From Methanomassiliicoccales archaeon LGM-DZ1 (GTDB lineage Archaea; Thermoplasmatota; Thermoplasmata; Methanomassiliicoccales; Methanomethylophilaceae), in assembly GCA_030168595.1 (NCBI GenBank), contig CP115556.1, positions 620,001 to 684,000 of the forward strand: a stretch of 64,000 bases of DNA. The letters run 5' to 3'. Numbering within the stretch: the stretch's first letter is position 1; each line of letters starts with the position of its first letter. Positions 48,253-58,632 of the stretch are shown here, piece after piece. The notes beneath the pieces were generated by a model. That model was given only the letters and a program-made list of their open reading frames with translations, was not told the DNA's origin and searched no databases. The position numbers and the translations under genes were made by a program.

Positions 48253-48933
48253 ATGGCTCTCGATCCTTCTATAAAGGCCGTCGGATTCGATATGGACGGC
48301 ACGTTCATGCACACGAAAGTGGACTATCCGAAGCTGTCCCGCGTAGTGTATGACGAATTCGAGAACCTCGGGGTCCCGGAGGACGTCCTCCTCACCGACA
48401 ACTACAAGCTCACCATGGACAGGGGCATCGAATGGCTCAGGACCCACGGAGGCTCGGAGCACATCCCCGGGATCAACGAGCGCATAGGCAGAAGGGCGAC
48501 CGAGATCGAGATGGAGAACGCGGCCATCGCCGTCCCCTACCCCGGAGCGGTCGAGGTCCTCGACATGCTCATAAGCAAAGGGTACAGGGTGGGGATCCTG
48601 ACCAGGGGAGGCCGCAGATACGCTACCACCGTCCTCGGAGAGGCCGGAGTGCTCAGGAAGTTCAACGCTATCGTGGCCAGGGACGATTATCCGGAGGAGG
48701 AGGCTAAGCCGAACCCTCTCGCCATGGACCACCTCGCCGCCGCTCTGGGCGTGAAGAGCCGCGAGATACTGTATCTCGGCGACGGCATCGTCGACTTCAT
48801 GACCGCCGATGCCTCTGGAGCGTCGTTCATCGGCGTCGAGACCGGTCCCAACAGCGCGGATATGTGGCACAAGAAGGTCGGCTGGGATATCCGCATCATC
48901 CCGAGTGTTGCCGAGCTGAAGGACCTAATCTGA
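48253..48933 (+). CDS. HAD family hydrolase (phosphoglycolate phosphatase-like)
   Basis: 226 residues. HAD motif I is GFDMDGTFMH (about 11-20), motif II GILTRGG, motif III lysine around AKPNPLAM, and motif IV LGDGIVDFMTA. The helical cap between motifs I and II makes it a class I HAD. These enzymes remove phosphate from small metabolites such as 2-phosphoglycolate; the substrate is not readable. It starts 63 bases after RNase P RNA. Confidence 0.85.
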   Translation: MALDPSIKAVGFDMDGTFMHTKVDYPKLSRVVYDEFENLGVPEDVLLTDNYKLTMDRGIEWLRTHGGSEHIPGINERIGRRATEIEMENAAIAVPYPGAVEVLDMLISKGYRVGILTRGGRRYATTVLGEAGVLRKFNAIVARDDYPEEEAKPNPLAMDHLAAALGVKSREILYLGDGIVDFMTADASGASFIGVETGPNSADMWHKKVGWDIRIIPSVAELKDLI

Positions 48934-49189: not shown

Positions 49190-49831
49190 ATGGCTGACAA
49201 AGAAGAGATAATCGGAAGGCTCACATCCTCCGTACAGAACTACAAGAGAGCTGATGCGGCGCAGGCCGCGCGCGATGCCCTGGATGCGGGCGTAGATCCT
49301 CTCGAAGCGATCAACGACGGGCTCCTCAGGGGGATGACGGTCGTCGGAGACCAATTCAGCAGGCACAAGGCGTTCCTGCCCCAGCTGCTTACCGCCGCAG
49401 CGGCGATGTACGGGGCCCTGGACATCCTGCTCCCGGCGATTCCTGTCGGGGAGCACAGGGAGACCAAGACGGTCACCCTCGCAGTGGTCGAAGGAGACGT
49501 GCACGACATCGGCAAAAATATCGTCAAGACCCTTTTGACTGCTGGCGGTTTCGAGGTCCATGACCTAGGAAAAGACGTTTCCGCAGAGGACATCGCGGAT
49601 ACTGCCCAGAGCAGCGGTTCCACCGCGATCGCCCTGAGCGCTCTCATGACCACTACGATGTTCAAGATGAAGGACACGATCGACCTGCTCGAGGAGAACG
49701 GCTACCGCGACAATGTGAAGATAAGCATAGGCGGCGCCCCTACATCGCCGGCTTTCGCAAAGGACATCGGGGCCGACCACTGGGACAGGAACGCGCAGGA
49801 CATCGTCAGATGGCTGAAGGAGAGTGCCTGA
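49190..49831 (+). CDS. Corrinoid protein of a methyltransferase system (MtbC/MttC-like)
   Basis: 213 residues. The N-terminal helical cap domain (to about 85, with DPLEAINDGLLRGM) is followed by the B12-binding Rossmann domain. EGDVHDIGKNIV (about 103) provides the axial histidine of the DxHxxG motif, then ALSALMTTT and SIGGAPTSP. It carries the methyl group on cobalt between two methyltransferases. It is the first gene of the operon, and its stop abuts the UroD-type gene (TGAATG). No MttB/MtbB/MtmB gene with internal TAG is next to it. Confidence 0.92.
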   Translation: MADKEEIIGRLTSSVQNYKRADAAQAARDALDAGVDPLEAINDGLLRGMTVVGDQFSRHKAFLPQLLTAAAAMYGALDILLPAIPVGEHRETKTVTLAVVEGDVHDIGKNIVKTLLTAGGFEVHDLGKDVSAEDIADTAQSSGSTAIALSALMTTTMFKMKDTIDLLEENGYRDNVKISIGGAPTSPAFAKDIGADHWDRNAQDIVRWLKESA

Positions 49832-50953
49832 ATGGCCCGCAAGATGAACCACCTGGAAAGGGCCTCGGCAGCCCTGGCCGATGAAGATGCAGACAGGCTG
49901 ACCGTCTATCCCATCGCCTGCGGCGTCTCGAGAAGGCTCATCGGGAACGGGAAGACCACATACAGGGAATGGTGCCAGAGCCCCGAGAAATTCGCAGAGG
50001 GGTTCGTGGCCGCCCAGAAGGCCTTCGATCTCGATTTCTCCATCGGGCTGATGGACCTCTCGGTCATTGCCGGCGACTTCGGCGCAGGAGTGAGGTTCGA
50101 CGAGGAGAACACGCCCTTTGTGGACAAGCCCCTGATCAAAAACCTGGAGGATTACGACAGGCTGGAAGAACCGGACCCTGAGAAGGGGAGGACCAACGTC
50201 ATAATCGAGGGCAGCAGGCTGGTCGCCGAGAGGCTCGGGAATGAGGTCATCACCTCAGCGTTCCTCGAGGGGCCTCTCCTGGTGCTCAGCCAGTCAGCCG
50301 GGGCAGAGAAGCTGTTCTTCGACTCGTTCGAGGAGCCGGACACAGTCAAAAGAGCGCTCAGGACGGTCACGGAGTACGAGAAGAAGATCGTCCGCAGACT
50401 GGGGGCCACAGGCACCAATGCAATCTGCTGGGACTACCTCTGGGCCAACTATTCCTGCCTGGACGACGCGGAGTACGGGGATCTCGAAGGCGACGTCTTC
50501 GCGCCGGAGCTCAACGAGGAGACCAGAAGAAACGGGATGGCCGTAGCCATCCACAACTGCGCCGACCTCCCCCATCTGGATACCCAGGTGAAGAAGTTCA
50601 GGCCGTCGATCTACTCGATGGCATACTATCCCCTGATCGAAGGATCGAAGACCGCTTCGCAGGTCATCGACGGAGGATACGCCGACAATACCCTCATCGC
50701 CGGGAACCTCGACCCCCAGCTCTTCGAGCGCGGGACCGTCCAGCAGGTCGACGAAGCCACGCGGGCACTGTGCCAGGAGGCCAAGACTGCGCTGTGCAGG
50801 AGGGGACTCAGGTCCAGGTACTGCATCGCGAGCGGATGCGAGGTGCCCCCTACCACGACCTGCAGGCTGGAGAACATCAAGGCGGTATCGGACGCCGTCA
50901 AGAGATACGGAACCCTGGGCGAGCGATCCCAGGGATCCGGGAGGACGGTATGA
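49832..50953 (+). CDS. UroD-family methyltransferase, probable MT1 or MT2 of the operon
   Basis: 373 residues. Zinc-ligand motifs are AIHNCADLPH (about 245, His and Cys) and SGCEVPP (about 335, Cys), as in MtaA/MtbA and in UroD-type demethylating methyltransferases. The N terminus HLERASAALADEDADRLTVYP is related to, but clearly different from, the 41296 protein. With a dedicated corrinoid protein next to it, it could be the substrate-specific methyltransferase for an O- or S-methyl compound, or the CoM-loading enzyme. The sequence alone does not decide. It overlaps the next gene by four bases (ATGA). Confidence 0.82.
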   Translation: MARKMNHLERASAALADEDADRLTVYPIACGVSRRLIGNGKTTYREWCQSPEKFAEGFVAAQKAFDLDFSIGLMDLSVIAGDFGAGVRFDEENTPFVDKPLIKNLEDYDRLEEPDPEKGRTNVIIEGSRLVAERLGNEVITSAFLEGPLLVLSQSAGAEKLFFDSFEEPDTVKRALRTVTEYEKKIVRRLGATGTNAICWDYLWANYSCLDDAEYGDLEGDVFAPELNEETRRNGMAVAIHNCADLPHLDTQVKKFRPSIYSMAYYPLIEGSKTASQVIDGGYADNTLIAGNLDPQLFERGTVQQVDEATRALCQEAKTALCRRGLRSRYCIASGCEVPPTTTCRLENIKAVSDAVKRYGTLGERSQGSGRTV

Positions 50954-51264
50954 ACGGTTTCTTCAGAGCGATGGAGGCAGAGGGCTTCTCAGGCTGCGCT
51001 ACGGCATCGGTCAGGAAGATAGCCTGCCCGAACTGCGGCTTCCGCTTCTCCCTGGTCTATGCCCGCGCAGTGGCATGCAGGGGATGCCCGGAGGCCTGCA
51101 GGGGATGCCCCCAGGTGAGGTGTGCCAGATGCGATTCGGAGTTCCCTGTGGGGATCTCCCCCGACGTGAACGGGAAGGCCCAGGAGAGGACCCTGGCGGA
51201 CCACATATGCAGGATAGTCAACGAACACAACGAGAGCAGAGGAATAGAGACAGCGAACAGGTGA
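50950..51264 (+). CDS. Small protein with four CxxC motifs, candidate redox/metal partner
   Basis: 104 residues from ATG 50950. Four CxxC pairs (CPNC, CRGC, CRGC, CARC) lie at about residues 26-70, with further cysteines at about 16 and 91. CRGCPEACRGCPQVRCARC is dense enough for two zinc sites or Fe-S clusters. No known family recognised. It is coupled on both sides: ATGA overlap with the methyltransferase, and six bases before the ASKHA ATPase gene. RamA/RACo activators combine an Fe-S domain with an ASKHA domain in one chain; here these may be two proteins. Confidence 0.7.
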   Translation: MNGFFRAMEAEGFSGCATASVRKIACPNCGFRFSLVYARAVACRGCPEACRGCPQVRCARCDSEFPVGISPDVNGKAQERTLADHICRIVNEHNESRGIETANR

Positions 51265-51269
51265 ATGGA

Positions 51270-53282
51270 ATGGCAATAGGTCTGGGAATAGATACAGGCG
51301 GAACGTACACGGACAGCGTCATCCTCGATATGGACAGCAAGACAATACTGAGCAAGGCGAAAGCCCTGACAACGAGGAATGACCTGGCGATCGGAATCTC
51401 GGAGAGTATAGGGAAGCACGACAGGGATCTCCTGAAGAAGATCTCCCTGGTCTCCCTTTCCTCCACCCTGGCCACCAACTCGGTGGTCGAAGGGAAAGGA
51501 TGCCGCGCCGGGCTCATCTGCATCGGGAGGGGCTACGAAGGGCCGGTCGCCGCAGACGCTTATGCGCAGATCGCCGGATCCCACGACCTCAAAGGGAACG
51601 AGAAGATCCCCCTGGACGAAGAAGGTGCCAGGAAGGCACTGGAATCCATGAGGGGAAAGGTGGACTCGGTCGCCGTAACAGGCTATCTGAGCATCAGGAA
51701 TCCCGGACATGAGGACCGTGTGGCGGACCTCGCAAGGAAGATCCTGGATGTCCCGGTCGTTAGAGGGCATGACCTCTCCTCCGGCCTCGGGTTCAACGAG
51801 AGGACGACAACAGCACTGATGAACGCCCGCCTCATCCCTGTCATCGCCGACCTCATACGGTCAGTGAAGCAATCGCTGGCACAATACGGGATCGGCGCAC
51901 CTCTGATGATCGTGAAGGGGGACGGGACTGTCCTGAACGAAGAGACGGCCGCCGAGAGGCCGGTGGAGACTGTGCTGTCCGGTCCTGCATCGAGCCTGAC
52001 GGGAGCGAAGGCCCTGACGGGAGCGAAGGATGCGGTGATGATCGACATCGGCGGCACCACCACCGACATCGGGGTCCTGAGAGACGGCTTCCCCCGGCTC
52101 GAGAAGGAGGGGGCGCTCATCGCCGGGAAGAGGACCAGGGTCCTGGCCGCCGCCGTATCCACCTACGGCATCGGCGGAGACAGCAGGATCATCGTCAACG
52201 GCACCGCCATCGGCCTGACCCCTGTCCGCGTCATCCCGATATGCATCGCGGCGTCCAAATGGCCTCACGTGAAGGAGAGACTGAAGGCGATCTCCGAACG
52301 CGAGCCGAACCGTGCCGGCGAGACCGTCGAGGAGGAGAGCATCCTCCAGGAGACGGAGTTCTTCACGCCTGCCCGGCCGGTCACCACGGAGACCATGCAG
52401 GAGACTGACAGAAAGCTCCTGGAACTCATCGCGGACAGCCCTCTGACACTCGAGGAAGCGGGGGAGGCCATCGGCGTGCTCCCTTACTCGTTCAACGCCG
52501 CAAGGCTGGAGAAACTGGGTCTCGTGACCAGGATAGGCGTGACCCCCACCGACATACTCCGTGCCGAAGGCAGTTATGACGGTTACGACGGAGAGGCCTC
52601 TGACCTTGCAGTGAGATATCTGGCCAAGAAGGCAAGGCTCGGGAAGGAAGAGTTCATCTCGCAGGTCAAGGACGCCATCGAGACCAAGATCGCCGTGAGC
52701 CTGGTGAAGGACCTCATGCTCGAGGACGGAGGTTACGAGAAGCTCGGCCCCGCGGCCGAGGAACTCATCCGCAAGGCGATCTCCGGGAAGGACGGGAAGG
52801 ACTTCAGCGTGTTCCTGAAGCTGAACAAGCCCATCATCGGGATCGGCGCGCCGGTCGGCGCATGGCTTCCGAAAGTGGCGGAGATATTCAACACGCAGCT
52901 GATCCTCCCCGAGAACTCATCCGTGGGCAATGCCGTGGGCGCGGTATCCGGTTCTGTCTCCAAGACCGTCAGAGTGCACATCCAGCCCAGGGAGGGCTCG
53001 ATCGGTGCGGATCCGGCATCCGAGGTGTTCCTTGACGGCAGGAAGTACTCCTTCCCGACGTTCTCCGAGGCGCTGGCCTTCGCCGATGCCGAGGGCAGGA
53101 AGCACGCCGAGGAACTGGCCAGGGAATCGGGCGCGTCCAATGTGTACGTGGAGTCCGATGTAGAGAAGAAGACGTTCGGCACATCCTCAGACCCCGACGG
53201 GCGGATCCTGCTCGAGGCCGATGTGATCCTCAGGGCCACCGGCAAGCCCGATCTCCTCGAGGAGGCCGGGAACCCGGCCTGA
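51270..53282 (+). CDS. Hydantoinase-A-like ASKHA ATPase, candidate corrinoid reactivator
   Basis: 670 residues from ATG 51270, with an AGGTGA ribosome site. ASKHA signatures are GLGIDTGGTYTDSVI at the N terminus, IDIGGTTTDIGVLRDG (about 255) and a GNAVGAVSG segment (about 555), as in the HyuA/oxoprolinase A family. A winged-helix-like insertion (LTLEEAGEAIGVLPYSFNAA, about 395-415) splits the later part. HyuA proteins usually hydrolyse cyclic amides with an HyuB partner; none is here. Fourth place in a corrinoid methyltransferase operon suggests ATP-driven reactivation of Co(II) corrinoid, a role RamA fills elsewhere. That role is inferred. Confidence 0.75.
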   Translation: MAIGLGIDTGGTYTDSVILDMDSKTILSKAKALTTRNDLAIGISESIGKHDRDLLKKISLVSLSSTLATNSVVEGKGCRAGLICIGRGYEGPVAADAYAQIAGSHDLKGNEKIPLDEEGARKALESMRGKVDSVAVTGYLSIRNPGHEDRVADLARKILDVPVVRGHDLSSGLGFNERTTTALMNARLIPVIADLIRSVKQSLAQYGIGAPLMIVKGDGTVLNEETAAERPVETVLSGPASSLTGAKALTGAKDAVMIDIGGTTTDIGVLRDGFPRLEKEGALIAGKRTRVLAAAVSTYGIGGDSRIIVNGTAIGLTPVRVIPICIAASKWPHVKERLKAISEREPNRAGETVEEESILQETEFFTPARPVTTETMQETDRKLLELIADSPLTLEEAGEAIGVLPYSFNAARLEKLGLVTRIGVTPTDILRAEGSYDGYDGEASDLAVRYLAKKARLGKEEFISQVKDAIETKIAVSLVKDLMLEDGGYEKLGPAAEELIRKAISGKDGKDFSVFLKLNKPIIGIGAPVGAWLPKVAEIFNTQLILPENSSVGNAVGAVSGSVSKTVRVHIQPREGSIGADPASEVFLDGRKYSFPTFSEALAFADAEGRKHAEELARESGASNVYVESDVEKKTFGTSSDPDGRILLEADVILRATGKPDLLEEAGNPA

Positions 53283-53885: not shown

Positions 53886-56609
53886 TCACTCGTAGCCGCG
53901 TCCGAGGACGTGCTTCCTGTCCTCTTCCTTCTCCTCTTCGAGGCGGTTGTAATCGAACCTCTCGATGTTGTCGGCGAAGGTGGTGTTGGGAGGCATGAGC
54001 TTCTTGGCCATCTGCATGACGGTGCTCATCATGGACATGATGCCGTGGCCCAGGTTGACGCCGAACCTCGACATTCCGCAGGTGACGTGCCCGGGGTTCA
54101 TGACATCGTGGGGGTCCTCGAAGGTCTTGAACTCCCTCATGAGCGAGACTGCGTTGGGGTCATGGACGTTGTCGAGGTTCCAGGCGAAGAAGATGCCGAA
54201 CCCGGTGGTCCTTCCTCCGTACTCGGCGGCCCTGTCGCCGAGGTAGAAGTTGAAGGCGAAGGCGGTCATGCCCAGCATGGACTCGTCGTCCTTGAAGTAG
54301 TAGGGCATCCAGAGGACGGTGTTGTCGTCGACGACCTCGCCGATGATCCCTCCGAGCTCCATCTTCATGTCGTCGAAGCCCTTGTAGCAGACAGGCACGA
54401 AGGCCCCCCATCTCTTGGCGGGGATGATGACCTCGGCGGGGATCTCTCCGACACCGGCCTTCCTGGCCCTGAACTCGTAGCACCTCTCGGCCCACTCGTG
54501 CTCTCCGACCTCGGGCGCGGTGGCCCTTCCGCCGGCGCGGGCGACGAGCTCCTCGACCGCCGCCTCCTCGAGCGCGATGTGCTTGTCGTCGCCCTGGAAG
54601 GTGACGAGGAGGATGTTCTTCACGTCGGGGGCGTGCACATGGGCGCGGTGCTGGTTCCTGAAGTGGTTCTCGTCGGACCAGCTGATGTGCAGGGGGGTCA
54701 CGCTCGCGTTAGCGATGATCCCCTGGATGACGGGGTCGGCCTCGGCGAGGCTGTTGAGGAACTCATAGGCCACGGGCTTCACGGTCCCCCTCGGGTAGAT
54801 CCTGAAGGTGGCGGAGGCGAACAGGCAGAGGGTTCCCTCGGAACCGGCGAAGAACTGGTTGAGGTTGTATCCGGAATAGTAGGATCCCATGTTCTTGTAA
54901 CCGGTGTTGATGACGGTCCCGTCGGGGAGGACGGCCTCGAGGCTCAGCACGTTGTCCTTGGCGGACCCGTACTTGTAGGAGCCGATACCCATACCGTTGG
55001 TCCCGAGCCAGGCGCCGATGGTCCCCGCAGGGAACGAGGAGGGCATGGACCCGATGAGGAACCCTTTCTCCTCAGCGGCCTCGAGGGCCTCTTTCCAAGT
55101 GGCGCCGGCCTGTATGGTGGCGGTCATGGAGACGGGGTCGATGGAGATCTTGTTCATCTTCGACGAGAAGTCGACGACGAGGCCGCGCATGGCGGGCTGG
55201 GACCCTCCGAGTCCCCAGGTGGAGTTGCCGCGGGGGGTCACCGGGATGCCCTCCCTGTAGGCGACCTTCATGATCTGGGACAGTTCGGAGGTCTTGCTGG
55301 GCCTGAGGACCGCGTCCGGCATGTTGTCGAAGGCGATGGTCGCCAGCTTGGGCAGCGGGGCGAGGTCGTGAGTGTAGAGGATCTTCTCCTCGGGGCTGGT
55401 GTTGACGTTCTCCTTGCCCAGGATGTCCTTCAGCTCGTCGAGTATCTTGTCGTTGATGGCGCGCTTCAGCCTGTCGCCGGAGTGCACGTCGTACTCCCCG
55501 GTCTTGAAGAACTCCTTGAGGGCCTTCATGAAGGCAGCGGTGCCCTCGTCGCGGATCGCATCGATCCTGTCTCCGACGAGGACCTTCCTGGCCTCCCTGC
55601 CGCCGAGCTTGGCCGCCTCGCCGGCGGCATTGTCGGAATCGGCGATGAAGTACGCGGTGTACCTGTCGGCCACGGCCCCGTGCGCTTTCCCGCCGACGGC
55701 GGCGATGTAGGCGCCGGCGTTGGCAAGGGGAACGATAACCCCGGCCTTCCCGGCCGGCTCGAAGGCCGCGGCGGCCTCGGTCTTGGCGCCGTTGGCGGCG
55801 GCCGCGAGGCCGTCGGTCTGGACGGTGTCGAGCTCGACGAACTCGGGCTCTCCCTGGTACTCCAGGGTGAAGACGGTCTTGCCGCCTTCGGTGCAGAAAG
55901 TGAAGTTGATGGGCTTCAGCCCGGGGTCCCTGATGACGGCGTTCTCGAAAGCAACCGCGTCATCGTCGGAGGAGAACGCGTAAGAGACGGCCTTCCTGAC
56001 GCCTGCGGGATGGAGCTTCAGGGTAACGGCCGTGACGATCCCGAGGGTTCCCTCGGACCCGGGGATCAGCTGGATGAAGTTGTATCCGGACATGTAGCTG
56101 CCGATCTCGTCGTAGCCGGGCTCGATGACGGTCCCGTCGTTGAGCACGATCTCGGCGTTCAGCAGGTTGTCCTTCGCAGGTCCGTACTTGTAGGTCCCGT
56201 TCCCGACGGCCTCGGAGGCCGCCCAGGACCCGACGGGCTCGCTGAGGTCGAAGGGCATCGATCCCAGGACCATGCCCTCGGCCGCGGCGGCCGCGATGAT
56301 CTCTTTGAACCCGGCGCCGGCCTGCGCCTTGACGGCGTGGTCGGCCTTGCTTACGGAGACCTTGTTCATCTTGGACAGATCGACGGCGATCCCTCCTCCG
56401 CAGAAGGCCGCGGTGCCGAGCGCGGCGACGCGGATGCCGGCCGCCATCCTGACGACGGCTGCGACCTCCTCGGCGGAGGACACGGTAACGATCACGTCGG
56501 GGGAGAACTCCTTCTCATCCTCGATCCTGACTTTCGCCTCGCCGACAGCATTCCTGATGTTCTCCACGACGCCGAGGGCGGCTTCGCGGTACTTGTTCTT
56601 GGACTCCAT
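53886..56609 (-). CDS. Tandem two-module FAD-linked oxidase (GlcD-like)
   Basis: 907 residues from ATG 56609 (MESKNKYREA). Module 1 (about 1-400) has an FAD-binding_4 fold with IAVDLSKMNK, GSMPFDLSEPVGSW and YMSGYNFIQLIPGSEGTLG. Module 2 (about 410-907) repeats it fully: TPRGNSTWGLGG, VVDFSSKMNKI, GSMPSSFPAGTIGAW, YYSGYNLNQFFAGSEGTL, and a complete substrate-cap and C-terminal part with NPGHVTCGMSRFG. GlcD proteins oxidise 2-hydroxyacids with FAD and pass electrons to HdrD-like Fe-S subunits. None is fused or adjacent here. Module 1 lacks the early PP-loop PRG motif and may be structural. A shared electron-transfer role with Hdr is inferred. Confidence 0.8.
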   Translation of the reverse strand: MESKNKYREAALGVVENIRNAVGEAKVRIEDEKEFSPDVIVTVSSAEEVAAVVRMAAGIRVAALGTAAFCGGGIAVDLSKMNKVSVSKADHAVKAQAGAGFKEIIAAAAAEGMVLGSMPFDLSEPVGSWAASEAVGNGTYKYGPAKDNLLNAEIVLNDGTVIEPGYDEIGSYMSGYNFIQLIPGSEGTLGIVTAVTLKLHPAGVRKAVSYAFSSDDDAVAFENAVIRDPGLKPINFTFCTEGGKTVFTLEYQGEPEFVELDTVQTDGLAAAANGAKTEAAAAFEPAGKAGVIVPLANAGAYIAAVGGKAHGAVADRYTAYFIADSDNAAGEAAKLGGREARKVLVGDRIDAIRDEGTAAFMKALKEFFKTGEYDVHSGDRLKRAINDKILDELKDILGKENVNTSPEEKILYTHDLAPLPKLATIAFDNMPDAVLRPSKTSELSQIMKVAYREGIPVTPRGNSTWGLGGSQPAMRGLVVDFSSKMNKISIDPVSMTATIQAGATWKEALEAAEEKGFLIGSMPSSFPAGTIGAWLGTNGMGIGSYKYGSAKDNVLSLEAVLPDGTVINTGYKNMGSYYSGYNLNQFFAGSEGTLCLFASATFRIYPRGTVKPVAYEFLNSLAEADPVIQGIIANASVTPLHISWSDENHFRNQHRAHVHAPDVKNILLVTFQGDDKHIALEEAAVEELVARAGGRATAPEVGEHEWAERCYEFRARKAGVGEIPAEVIIPAKRWGAFVPVCYKGFDDMKMELGGIIGEVVDDNTVLWMPYYFKDDESMLGMTAFAFNFYLGDRAAEYGGRTTGFGIFFAWNLDNVHDPNAVSLMREFKTFEDPHDVMNPGHVTCGMSRFGVNLGHGIMSMMSTVMQMAKKLMPPNTTFADNIERFDYNRLEEEKEEDRKHVLGRGYE

Positions 56610-56682
56610 GATGATACACTCCACTGCAGGGGCAGCGTGTCTACTATATGGGGTGCACGTAACCTATCTTATTTAATAAAAC

Positions 56683-57117
56683 TTAGGTAGCGCCAGCCGT
56701 CCCCGGCATGCGGAAAAAAGACAGCCTGGCCCTTTGTATCATGGCGGCCTTCTGGGGGGCGTCCATGCGGTACAGGTGGGACCTGCATCCGCAGTCCGAG
56801 CAGCCGAAACCTTCCATCTCCGCTACGCCGCCGCAGTCGGCGGCTATGCGCCCGAGCTGGCACTCCGAGATCGGGTCGGGATAGGATATCCAGGCCTCGG
56901 ACGAATCGCAGCGGACTGTCAGGTAATCGATATGCCAGCGGAGCTTCTTGTCATGTGCCAGATGGCGCATGACGCGCTGATCGATCCCGCCCATGGCGCT
57001 CCCCACGTAGCAATAAGTGCCCGCGCGGAAATGGTGCGTGCCGAGGGACCCCACGGAGATCTCCTCGTCATGCCCGAAGGTGACGAAGAGGGCATAGGTC
57101 CCCCGGCGGACACTCAT
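56683..57117 (-). CDS. DUF123 / GIY-YIG-like protein
   Basis: 144 residues. GTYALFVTFGHDEEISVGSLG and FRAGTYCYVGSAMGGIDQRVMRHL match the DUF123 domain, a GIY-YIG relative often fused to endonuclease III. The HWHIDYL-like RWHIDYLTV and the cysteine-rich CSDCGCRSHLYR end complete it. It overlaps mmp7 by four bases (ATGA), so it is the last gene of the MCR-activation operon, although its likely role is in nucleic-acid handling. Confidence 0.8.
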   Translation of the reverse strand: MSVRRGTYALFVTFGHDEEISVGSLGTHHFRAGTYCYVGSAMGGIDQRVMRHLAHDKKLRWHIDYLTVRCDSSEAWISYPDPISECQLGRIAADCGGVAEMEGFGCSDCGCRSHLYRMDAPQKAAMIQRARLSFFRMPGTAGAT

Positions 57118-58058
57118 CGCTTGGCCTTCAGCGAGTCCTCGTACTCCACCTGGGACCTCGTCTTTATGCGGATCAGCATGGAGCTGTCGTTGATCTTGGA
57201 CGGGGAGATCTCGCAGACATCGCCCAGCCGGCGGCCGTAGATCTCCATGTTCTCGATCTGCTCGTGGTACTCGTCGTAGGATATCTTGGCCCTGAGGCCG
57301 TCGAGGTGCATGACCAGCGGCGCCGGCCTGAGGCACATGTCGATGGGCTCGAAGTTCTCGAGCAGCGCCTTTATCTCCGACGGGTGGACGAACGGCGGGT
57401 CCTCCTCTATGGCCTTCTTCTTCTCCTCCAGGACCTCGCCGACGCGGTCGCCGACCTCGGAGAGCTTGGCCCTGTCCTCAGACTCCCTCATGCGGGAGGC
57501 CTTCCTGCCGATCCCGCTGACCACCGCGTCGCAGGTGCCGGCGACCTTGTCGCTGTCGGGCTTCGGCCCGCAGATCAGCACGGTCGGGATATCGATCTTC
57601 CTCAGGATCAGGTCGGCCTTGAACTCCACGCAGGGCTTGAAGTTGCCCAGCATGAACACGCAGGCGTCATACTCGTCGATGATGGACGATTCCTCGAGAT
57701 TGATCTGCGAGGTGTGCTTGCCGCGTCCCCTGGCGAGGCCCATGACGACGGTGACGGCGCCGAGCCTCCTCAGGTACTCCGCGACATCGCATATCGGGTG
57801 CGGCATGTGGTGGCGGCCCAGGGTGGGGCCGACGACAGCGATCTCGGTCCCCGCCAGGGGAACCTCCTTCACCTGCCCGCCGATGTCCTTGCAGAGGGCT
57901 TCGATCATCTGCCGGTCCTCGCTGGGGACCGACATGGTGACGGTCAGCATCTGCGCGCTCCTGTTCTTGAGGAGCACCACGCCCCCGACGTCCTCTATCA
58001 TCTCGAACAGCTCGTCGGAGCGGTACACTCCGCCGTCGTACATCAGAACCTCATACAT
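57114..58058 (-). CDS. mmp7: Methanogenesis marker protein 7
   Basis: 314 residues from ATG 58058 (MYEVLMYDGGVYR), overlapping the mmp17 stop by eight bases. GPTLGRHHMPHPICDVAEYLRR and ARGRGKHTSQINLEE, then FMLGNFKPCVEFKADLIL, match Mmp7 of methanogens. Structural work on the MCR activation complex places Mmp7 with Mmp17, Mmp3, McrC and component A2, together holding complex iron-sulfur clusters that feed electrons to F430. The conserved cysteines around HPICD, KPCVE and ICGPKP fit metal binding. Confidence 0.87.
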   Translation of the reverse strand: MYEVLMYDGGVYRSDELFEMIEDVGGVVLLKNRSAQMLTVTMSVPSEDRQMIEALCKDIGGQVKEVPLAGTEIAVVGPTLGRHHMPHPICDVAEYLRRLGAVTVVMGLARGRGKHTSQINLEESSIIDEYDACVFMLGNFKPCVEFKADLILRKIDIPTVLICGPKPDSDKVAGTCDAVVSGIGRKASRMRESEDRAKLSEVGDRVGEVLEEKKKAIEEDPPFVHPSEIKALLENFEPIDMCLRPAPLVMHLDGLRAKISYDEYHEQIENMEIYGRRLGDVCEISPSKINDSSMLIRIKTRSQVEYEDSLKAKR

Positions 58059-58632
58059 CGGGGACCACTCCTTTCGATACGGCCGCATGGATCTTCTCGG
58101 CAGTTGCGATCTGCTCCGGCCGGACGATCTCCTCGGTGGCCATCACGGTGACCGTGCTGCTGCCGCTGATCACCCTGCGGTTCCTGATGCCCTCGGGGAG
58201 CACCCTGGCGAGCGCCCCGAGAATGTCCTGGATGGGCTGCTCGGCGGACTCGACGGGGAGGGCATCGACCTCGGCCGAGGTATCGACGCCGTCGACCGTT
58301 ATGTCGAGGCGGTCCGTCTGCTGCACGCGGTCCCTCCCGTAGGTGTCCCAGAGCTTCTTCAGCATGCCGGGCGCGTACATCTCGTCCCTGATGCTGATGT
58401 ACACCTTCCCCCTCTCGGCCCTGGTCATGGCGACGTCGCCGATGCTCTTGGCCGCCGGCTTGGACCTGAGCCTGACCGACACGATGAAGAGGGGCTCCTC
58501 CGGCCTCAGCAGGAGGTACGAGCCCTCGATGGCGGTCAGCTTGCCGACGTCGTACATTATCTCCTCGTACAGGGACCGGTAGCGGTCGTTCCCGTACTCA
58601 TCGGTCCCGTTGACAGTGGTTTCTGCTGGCAT
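58051..58632 (-). CDS. mmp17: Methanogenesis marker protein 17
   Basis: 193 residues from ATG 58632, with a GAGG ribosome site eight bases ahead. The frame YEEIMYDVGKLTAIEGSYLL, then FIVSVRLRSKP and YAPGMLKKLWDTYGRDRVQQ, are as in Mmp17. It is a subunit of the MCR activation complex and small relative to its partners. It is flanked by mmp15 and mmp7 in a tightly packed operon. Confidence 0.87.
   Translation of the reverse strand: MPAETTVNGTDEYGNDRYRSLYEEIMYDVGKLTAIEGSYLLLRPEEPLFIVSVRLRSKPAAKSIGDVAMTRAERGKVYISIRDEMYAPGMLKKLWDTYGRDRVQQTDRLDITVDGVDTSAEVDALPVESAEQPIQDILGALARVLPEGIRNRRVISGSSTVTVMATEEIVRPEQIATAEKIHAAVSKGVVPDV

What the first reader, a model, noticed from the sequence alone, without database searches (positions are those of the whole stretch)
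49190..53282. Four-gene methyl-transfer operon with a possible split corrinoid activator
Seen: a corrinoid protein, a UroD-type methyltransferase, a 104-residue protein with four CxxC motifs and a HyuA-like ASKHA ATPase are joined by 0-6 base gaps or ATGA overlaps. Known: methanogen corrinoid proteins need a reductive activator (RamA, or RACo in acetogens) that combines Fe-S clusters with an ASKHA ATPase in one polypeptide. No RamA and no TAG-containing MttB/MtbB/MtmB are here, and no HyuB accompanies the HyuA-like protein. Inference: the Cys-rich protein and the HyuA-like ATPase together replace RamA, and the UroD-type protein may be the first methyltransferase for an O- or S-methyl substrate. 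A winged-helix-like insertion in the ATPase is a further oddity.
Basis: partly seen in the sequence, partly recalled or inferred. Interest (0 to 1): 0.8.

Follow-up and report, generated by a model that had tools for sequence, protein, structure and literature searches.

The report
Methyl-transfer operon with B12-linked hydantoinase-type ATPase
A methane-producing archaeon carries a conserved operon that pairs a vitamin-B12 methyl carrier and a zinc methyltransferase with a small cysteine-rich protein and a hydantoinase-like ATPase; this ATPase family tracks the known B12-reactivating enzyme RamA in archaea and bacteria, so it is probably an unrecognised helper of B12 methyl-transfer enzymes rather than a replacement for RamA.

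Summary
The four genes are real and tightly coupled (0-base junction, ATGA overlap, 5-base gap), and the block CoP-UroD-CysR-HyuA is conserved across Methanomassiliicoccales: cassette-type UroD in 76 of 147 genomes, cassette-type CysR in 72, both in 71, all with HyuA. Relatives show a longer version with a CobW GTPase, orf154 and often DUF1638 or DGC genes; the window's operon is a trimmed form. HyuB is absent (1 of 147 genomes), so this HyuA clade is no ordinary hydantoinase; it belongs to corrinoid methyl transfer. The 'split RamA' claim is not favoured: RamA is in 146 of 147 genomes (two copies here), HyuA relatives sit beside intact RamA in other archaeal and bacterial clusters, and 49 of 50 HyuA-carrying bacterial genomes have RamA (class baseline 41 of 190). 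CysR has only seven conserved cysteines, zinc-ribbon-like. One pattern keeps the claim alive: CysR-bearing clusters almost never contain RamA (1 of 34), whereas half of CysR-less HyuA methyltransferase clusters do (7 of 14). Best reading: an S-methyl corrinoid system (His-Cys-Cys zinc site) with a dedicated corrinoid-upkeep module around a new HyuA-type accessory ATPase.

The parts
49190..49831 (+). Corrinoid protein (CoP, 213 aa), MtbC/MtgC/MtsB-type, with the DVHDIG corrinoid-ligand motif
   Evidence: Pfam B12-binding 2.8e-24 and B12-binding_2 1e-18; TIGR02370 204 bits against a cut-off of 215; H105 invariant in 22 relatives
49832..50953 (+). UroD-type zinc methyltransferase (373 aa), His-Cys-Cys zinc site H241, C243, C336; distant from MtaA/MtbA
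   Evidence: URO-D 5e-40; below the NCBIfam cut-offs of MtaA, MtbA and MtaA/CmuA; zinc ligands invariant
50950..51264 (+). Cys-rich protein CysR (104 aa), zinc-ribbon-like, seven family-invariant Cys
   Evidence: ATGA overlap with UroD; alignment A1; weak profile match to the RPB12 zinc ribbon; co-occurs with the cassette UroD in 71 genomes
51270..53282 (+). HyuA-type (ASKHA) ATPase without HyuB (670 aa), corrinoid-associated subfamily
   Evidence: Hydant_A_N 3.4e-30, Hydantoinase_A 1.5e-28, MutL 30.3 bits against a cut-off of 27; AlphaFold pLDDT 88.5; nearest folds acetone carboxylase/caprolactamase; co-occurs with RamA in bacteria

Best explanation
The operon encodes a corrinoid-dependent methyltransferase pair plus a dedicated upkeep module for its corrinoid protein. 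The UroD-type zinc enzyme moves a methyl group between a sulfur compound (methylated thiol and/or coenzyme M) and the corrinoid protein, like MtsA with MtsB; its His-Cys-Cys site is shown, the substrate is inferred. When the cobalt is oxidised to inactive Co(II) or otherwise damaged, the HyuA-type ATPase, helped by the small metal-binding protein CysR, uses ATP to open, remodel or re-dock the corrinoid protein so that it can be put right; the low-potential electron for Co(I) comes from RamA, encoded elsewhere in the genome and acting in trans. HyuA is thus an accessory partner of the RamA/DUF1638 system, not its replacement. Shown: gene linkage, conservation, co-occurrence with RamA, absence of HyuB. 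Inferred: the ATP-driven remodelling step, the role of CysR, RamA acting in trans here, and the S-methyl substrate.
For: HyuA, CysR, CoP and UroD travel together. Among 34 cassettes read with flanks, 21 also hold a CobW-type G3E GTPase plus orf154, and 20 a DUF1638 or DGC gene; in L198 all seven genes CoP-UroD-CobW-orf154-CysR-HyuA-DUF1638 lie on one strand with coupled starts. DUF1638 is genetically tied to RamA-dependent B12 reactivation (PMC5764234; PMC12478193). HyuA relatives lie next to RamA/RACo and CoP in L092, L094 (operon CoP - DUF1638 region - pterin methyltransferase - RACo - HyuA) and next to RamA in L111 in bacteria, and in L075, L079, L086, L087, L170, L181, L183, L184 in archaea. 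49 of 50 bacterial genomes with the subfamily have RamA against 41 of 190 in the class sample; within that sample 10 of 11 HyuA carriers against 30 of 178 others, Fisher p = 6e-7. A HyuA-like protein in a glycine-betaine methyltransferase cluster is induced with glycine betaine (PMC9768040; membership of this subfamily not tested). RamM acts on a corrinoid protein encoded elsewhere (PMC6855144), so RamA in trans has precedent.
Against: No activity of any member is known. Many archaeal (14 full-flank loci) and most bacterial copies of the subfamily are solitary, so a B12 link rests there on co-occurrence alone. The P. inhibens fitness study named RamA and DUF1638, not a HyuA-like gene (PMC5764234), so HyuA is not generally needed for reactivation. 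The RamA co-occurrence runs one way: most RamA genomes lack this HyuA. CysR-bearing clusters largely lack RamA (1 of 34), which fits the split-activator rival better. Genomes and loci are related to each other, so the p-values overstate independence.
Confidence: 0.48

Rival explanations
1. Split activator: CysR carries an Fe-S cluster and HyuA the ATPase; together they reduce Co(II) to Co(I) and take the place of RamA for this corrinoid protein.
For: RamA lies within 6 kb of only 1 of 34 CysR-bearing HyuA/methyltransferase loci against 7 of 14 CysR-less ones (Fisher 0.0003, loci not independent). L075, L087, L181, L183 and L184 hold the set CoP, UroD, CobW, orf154, HyuA with RamA where the cassettes have CysR. 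Either way of pairing the zinc-ribbon Cys leaves three invariant Cys that could hold an open-site cluster.
Against: RamA in 146 of 147 genomes and two copies in this one; L207 has the cassette and RamA together; HyuA also accompanies RamA, so it does not stand in for RamA's ATPase; the fold is acetone-carboxylase-like (TM 0.55-0.64) and far from RACo (TM 0.21); CysR has no ferredoxin signature and a paralog with the same Cys sits beside lipid genes or a radical SAM gene.
Confidence: 0.2
2. Metal-delivery reading: CysR, CobW GTPase, orf154 and DGC proteins form a zinc (or cobalt-corrinoid) delivery and quality-control set for the UroD zinc enzyme or the corrinoid protein, and HyuA is its ATPase.
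For: CobW + orf154 in 21 and DGC in 13 of 34 cassettes; CobW genes also sit between MtaBC and RamA in this genome; the cassette UroD needs zinc; CysR looks like a zinc ribbon.
Against: The window's own operon lacks CobW and DGC; HyuA follows RamA across phyla, not CobW; no known HyuA-type protein delivers metal.
Confidence: 0.14
3. Substrate-preparing enzyme: HyuA uses ATP to activate a particular methylated compound, for instance a cyclic amide or ketone, so that the UroD enzyme can demethylate it.
For: Nearest folds are ATP-dependent acetone carboxylase, N-methylhydantoinase and caprolactamase subunits.
Against: Those enzymes act with a HyuB-type partner, absent in 146 of 147 genomes; the same subfamily sits with methylamine, glycine-betaine and thiol-type methyltransferases, so no single substrate fits.
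Confidence: 0.13

Closest known systems
MtsA/MtsB methylthiol:coenzyme M methyltransferase (Methanosarcina barkeri)
   Same: One corrinoid protein plus one UroD-type zinc methyltransferase, without a separate first methyltransferase
   Different: No accessory genes of the CysR/HyuA kind are described for it; homology to MtsA proper was not tested; dimethyl sulfide did not support an isolate of the order that carries annotated mtsAB (PMC10673518)
RamA/RACo reductive activators of corrinoid proteins
   Same: ATP-binding ASKHA core, linkage to corrinoid proteins, DUF1638 neighbour
   Different: HyuA has a hydantoinase/acetone-carboxylase architecture without Fe-S domain; CysR is not a ferredoxin; RamA is present as well
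Hydantoinase/oxoprolinase HyuA family (caprolactamase alpha, acetone carboxylase beta)
   Same: Pfam domains and overall fold
   Different: No HyuB partner; conserved linkage to corrinoid methyltransferases and RamA
GlmL/MutL and EutJ ASKHA accessory proteins of B12-dependent systems
   Same: P0001 scores above the Pfam MutL cut-off; ASKHA proteins serving B12 enzymes
   Different: Different architecture; GlmL and EutJ NCBIfam cut-offs not reached
Type I mlp gene clusters (PMC10418091)
   Same: UroD-type His-Cys-Cys methyltransferase with a corrinoid protein
   Different: Those carry several Mlps and a Ram/RACE gene; here there is one UroD and no RamA in the operon

Membership tests
RamA/RACo reductive activator | RACo-type ASKHA domain (PF14574) | tested here: not met
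   HyuA hits Hydant_A_N and Hydantoinase_A, not PF14574; Foldseek to RACo 3zyy TM 0.21 against 0.55-0.64 for acetone carboxylase/caprolactamase
RamA/RACo reductive activator | 2Fe-2S or 2x4Fe-4S ferredoxin-type domain | tested here: not met
   No Fer2/Fer4 match in CysR or HyuA; CysR has seven invariant Cys in zinc-ribbon-like spacing. Metal content unknown
RamA/RACo reductive activator | ATP-dependent Co(II) to Co(I) reduction | not testable with these tools
   Needs purified proteins
Hydantoinase/oxoprolinase (HyuA) | Hydant_A_N + Hydantoinase_A domains and fold | tested here: met
Hydantoinase/oxoprolinase (HyuA) | HyuB partner | tested here: not met
   PF02538 in 1 of 147 genomes of the order and not in this one
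MtsA/MtsB-like methylthiol methyltransferase | Corrinoid protein with DxHxxG | tested here: met
   DVHDIG at 103-108, H105 invariant
MtsA/MtsB-like methylthiol methyltransferase | His-Cys-Cys zinc site in the UroD-type enzyme | tested here: met
   H241, C243, C336 invariant in 14 relatives; reading of the site from PMC10418091
MtsA/MtsB-like methylthiol methyltransferase | Sequence orthology to MtsA; both half-reactions by one enzyme | not tested
   No MtsA reference was fetched; activity needs an assay
MtaA/MtbA coenzyme M methyltransferase | NCBIfam equivalog score | tested here: not met
   41.6 of 400 bits (MtaA), 35.6 of 600 (MtbA), 60.1 of 235 (MtaA/CmuA)
Type I mlp gene cluster | Mlp2 and Mlp3 plus Ram/RACE in the cluster | tested here: not met
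   One UroD gene and no RamA in the operon

The most novel reading that the evidence does not exclude
CysR and the HyuA-type ATPase form a RamA-independent, two-protein reductive activator for one corrinoid protein, a second evolutionary solution to making Co(I).
Probability: 0.18. Interest if true: 0.85.

Novelty: new variant of a known kind. Interest (0 to 1): 0.6.

Why it matters
How corrinoid proteins are kept in the Co(I) state is a bottleneck of methylotrophic methanogenesis and acetogenesis, and RamA is the only activator usually considered. A second ATPase family, annotated everywhere as a hydantoinase, tracks RamA and corrinoid proteins in archaea and several bacterial phyla. If it is a corrinoid helper, many genomes are misannotated and a missing component becomes testable, including in genetically tractable bacteria such as Sinorhizobium or Ruegeria. 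It may also help explain why methyl-sulfur use is predicted for Methanomassiliicoccales yet not seen in culture.

Tried and rejected
Plain hydantoinase: rejected, no HyuB. Pyl-type or MttB first methyltransferase hidden in the operon: none found. Four CxxC as two four-Cys Fe-S clusters: rejected as a family trait, C50 not conserved. Test by absence of RamA: impossible in the order, RamA is near-universal. AlphaFold of CysR: pLDDT 55, only two usable sequences, no conclusion. PDB search with the UroD protein: no hit at 0.001. The RamA label of L071 in the tree was a false short match, removed.
Full report
Observation. The four genes are present as described: CoP 49190-49831, UroD 49832-50953, CysR 50950-51264, HyuA 51270-53282. 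Pfam and NCBIfam identify CoP, UroD and HyuA; CysR matches no family. The window lies at 620001-684000 of a single-contig 1.77 Mb genome. The genome falls among 147 related genomes of one order, which I take to be Methanomassiliicoccales because a scan of named genomes returned a Methanomassiliicoccus locus whose HyuA is identical to one of these (L160). The McrC gene at 57117-58088 marks a methanogen.

Conservation. Searching 147 genomes of the order, the cassette-type UroD occurs in 76 and the cassette-type CysR in 72 (separated from a weaker paralog by E-value); 71 have both, 5 and 1 have only one, Fisher p about 1e-34. All of them have the HyuA; the 16 genomes without HyuA have neither. 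A second copy of the four-gene block lies in this same genome near 990.6-994.9 kb. With long flanks, 34 cassettes all have HyuA nearby; 21 carry a CobW-type G3E GTPase plus a 150-residue orf154, 13 DGC genes, 7 DUF1638. In L198 the seven genes CoP-UroD-CobW-orf154-CysR-HyuA-DUF1638 lie on one strand with overlapping or near-touching junctions. The window's four-gene operon is therefore a short form of a larger set.

The HyuA subfamily. It has the domains and fold of the hydantoinase/acetone-carboxylase family but no HyuB in 146 of 147 genomes. The 'winged-helix insertion' is shared with bacterial relatives. Full-length relatives at about 35% identity occur in Proteobacteria, Chloroflexota and Armatimonadota. 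In three of 79 bacterial loci they sit beside RamA and other corrinoid genes (L092, L094, L111); the rest are mostly solitary. At genome level, 49 of 50 carriers have RamA against 41 of 190 genomes of the class sample; inside that sample, 10 of 11 carriers have RamA against 30 of 178 non-carriers, p = 6e-7. In the order, HyuA copies without CysR also sit beside RamA with CoP, UroD, CobW and orf154 (L075, L087, L181, L183, L184), beside RACo (L079), or in dimethylamine clusters with RamA and DUF1638 (L086, L170). In the tree archaeal HyuAs form one group, RamA-linked members branch deep, and CysR linkage is scattered. A published proteome shows a HyuA-like protein induced with its glycine-betaine methyltransferase cluster (PMC9768040).

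CysR. Alignment of 20 members gives seven invariant cysteines; C50, needed for the fourth CxxC, is not conserved. The first two CxxC match the spacing of the RPB12 zinc ribbon, though C26/C29 with C58/C61 is an equally possible zinc pair; three cysteines remain either way. A paralog with the same cysteines is nearly universal in the order, placed near archaeal lipid genes or near a radical SAM and UroD gene. Structure prediction failed.

RamA. Two RamA genes are in this genome, one in the methanol MtaB/MtaC region with two CobW genes. RamA is in 146 of 147 genomes. RamA-type enzymes can serve corrinoid proteins encoded elsewhere (PMC6855144; PMC10805028). Yet only 1 of 34 CysR-bearing HyuA/methyltransferase loci has RamA within 6 kb, against 7 of 14 CysR-less ones (p = 0.0003, loci related). 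So CysR and RamA look like alternatives in otherwise similar clusters, which keeps the split-activator idea alive; but L207 has both, and HyuA accompanies RamA, so HyuA is not simply the ATPase half of a broken RamA.

Methyltransferase. UroD H241, C243 and C336 are invariant; by the criterion of PMC10418091 this points to sulfur (or selenium) chemistry. The protein is far below the MtaA and MtbA cut-offs. MtsAB homologs have been annotated in the order and an isolate carrying them did not use dimethyl sulfide (PMC10673518); whether those are these genes was not established.

Conclusion. The corrinoid link of this HyuA clade is well supported; its biochemical role is inferred. I favour an accessory ATPase for corrinoid-protein upkeep working with RamA in trans (0.48), over a RamA-independent split activator (0.20), metal delivery (0.14) or substrate activation (0.13).

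Limits. Genes in fetched loci were called by a simple ORF caller and labelled by BLAST to a small reference set. Genomes and loci are not independent.

Noticed in passing
L047:8291-8680, L057:8122-8424, L061:8491-8814: Stand-alone CysR paralog with the same seven Cys, nearly universal in the order, next to GGGP synthase/UbiA genes or to a radical SAM (HMPTM-type) and UroD gene; function unknown.
   Followed up: partly
window 53886-56624 (-): 912-residue protein with two FAD_binding_4 domains and one FAD-oxidase C-terminal domain, apparently two fused GlcD-type oxidases.
   Followed up: no
L049:11260-11598, L051:17295-17627, L060:10401-10778: DUF6951 (or look-alike) proteins flank several cassettes; a small Cys-containing 'DLNADCVCGCM' protein lies upstream in L052 and L056.
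   Followed up: no
L044:2086-3212 and L001:997-2619: Two CobW-type GTPases lie between the MtaB/MtaC genes and RamA of this genome.
   Followed up: partly
L116:6894-7934 and 13 further loci: In Rhodobacteraceae the bacterial HyuA relative often follows an epoxyqueuosine reductase (QueG) gene, itself a B12-dependent enzyme family.
   Followed up: no
L070, L073, L074, L076, L077, L082, L186-L189: Solitary HyuA copies without methyltransferase neighbours in genomes of the window's family.
   Followed up: partly
window 48253-48933: A HAD-type hydrolase directly upstream of the operon; a similar gene flanks the cassette in L049 (11610-12290).
   Followed up: no
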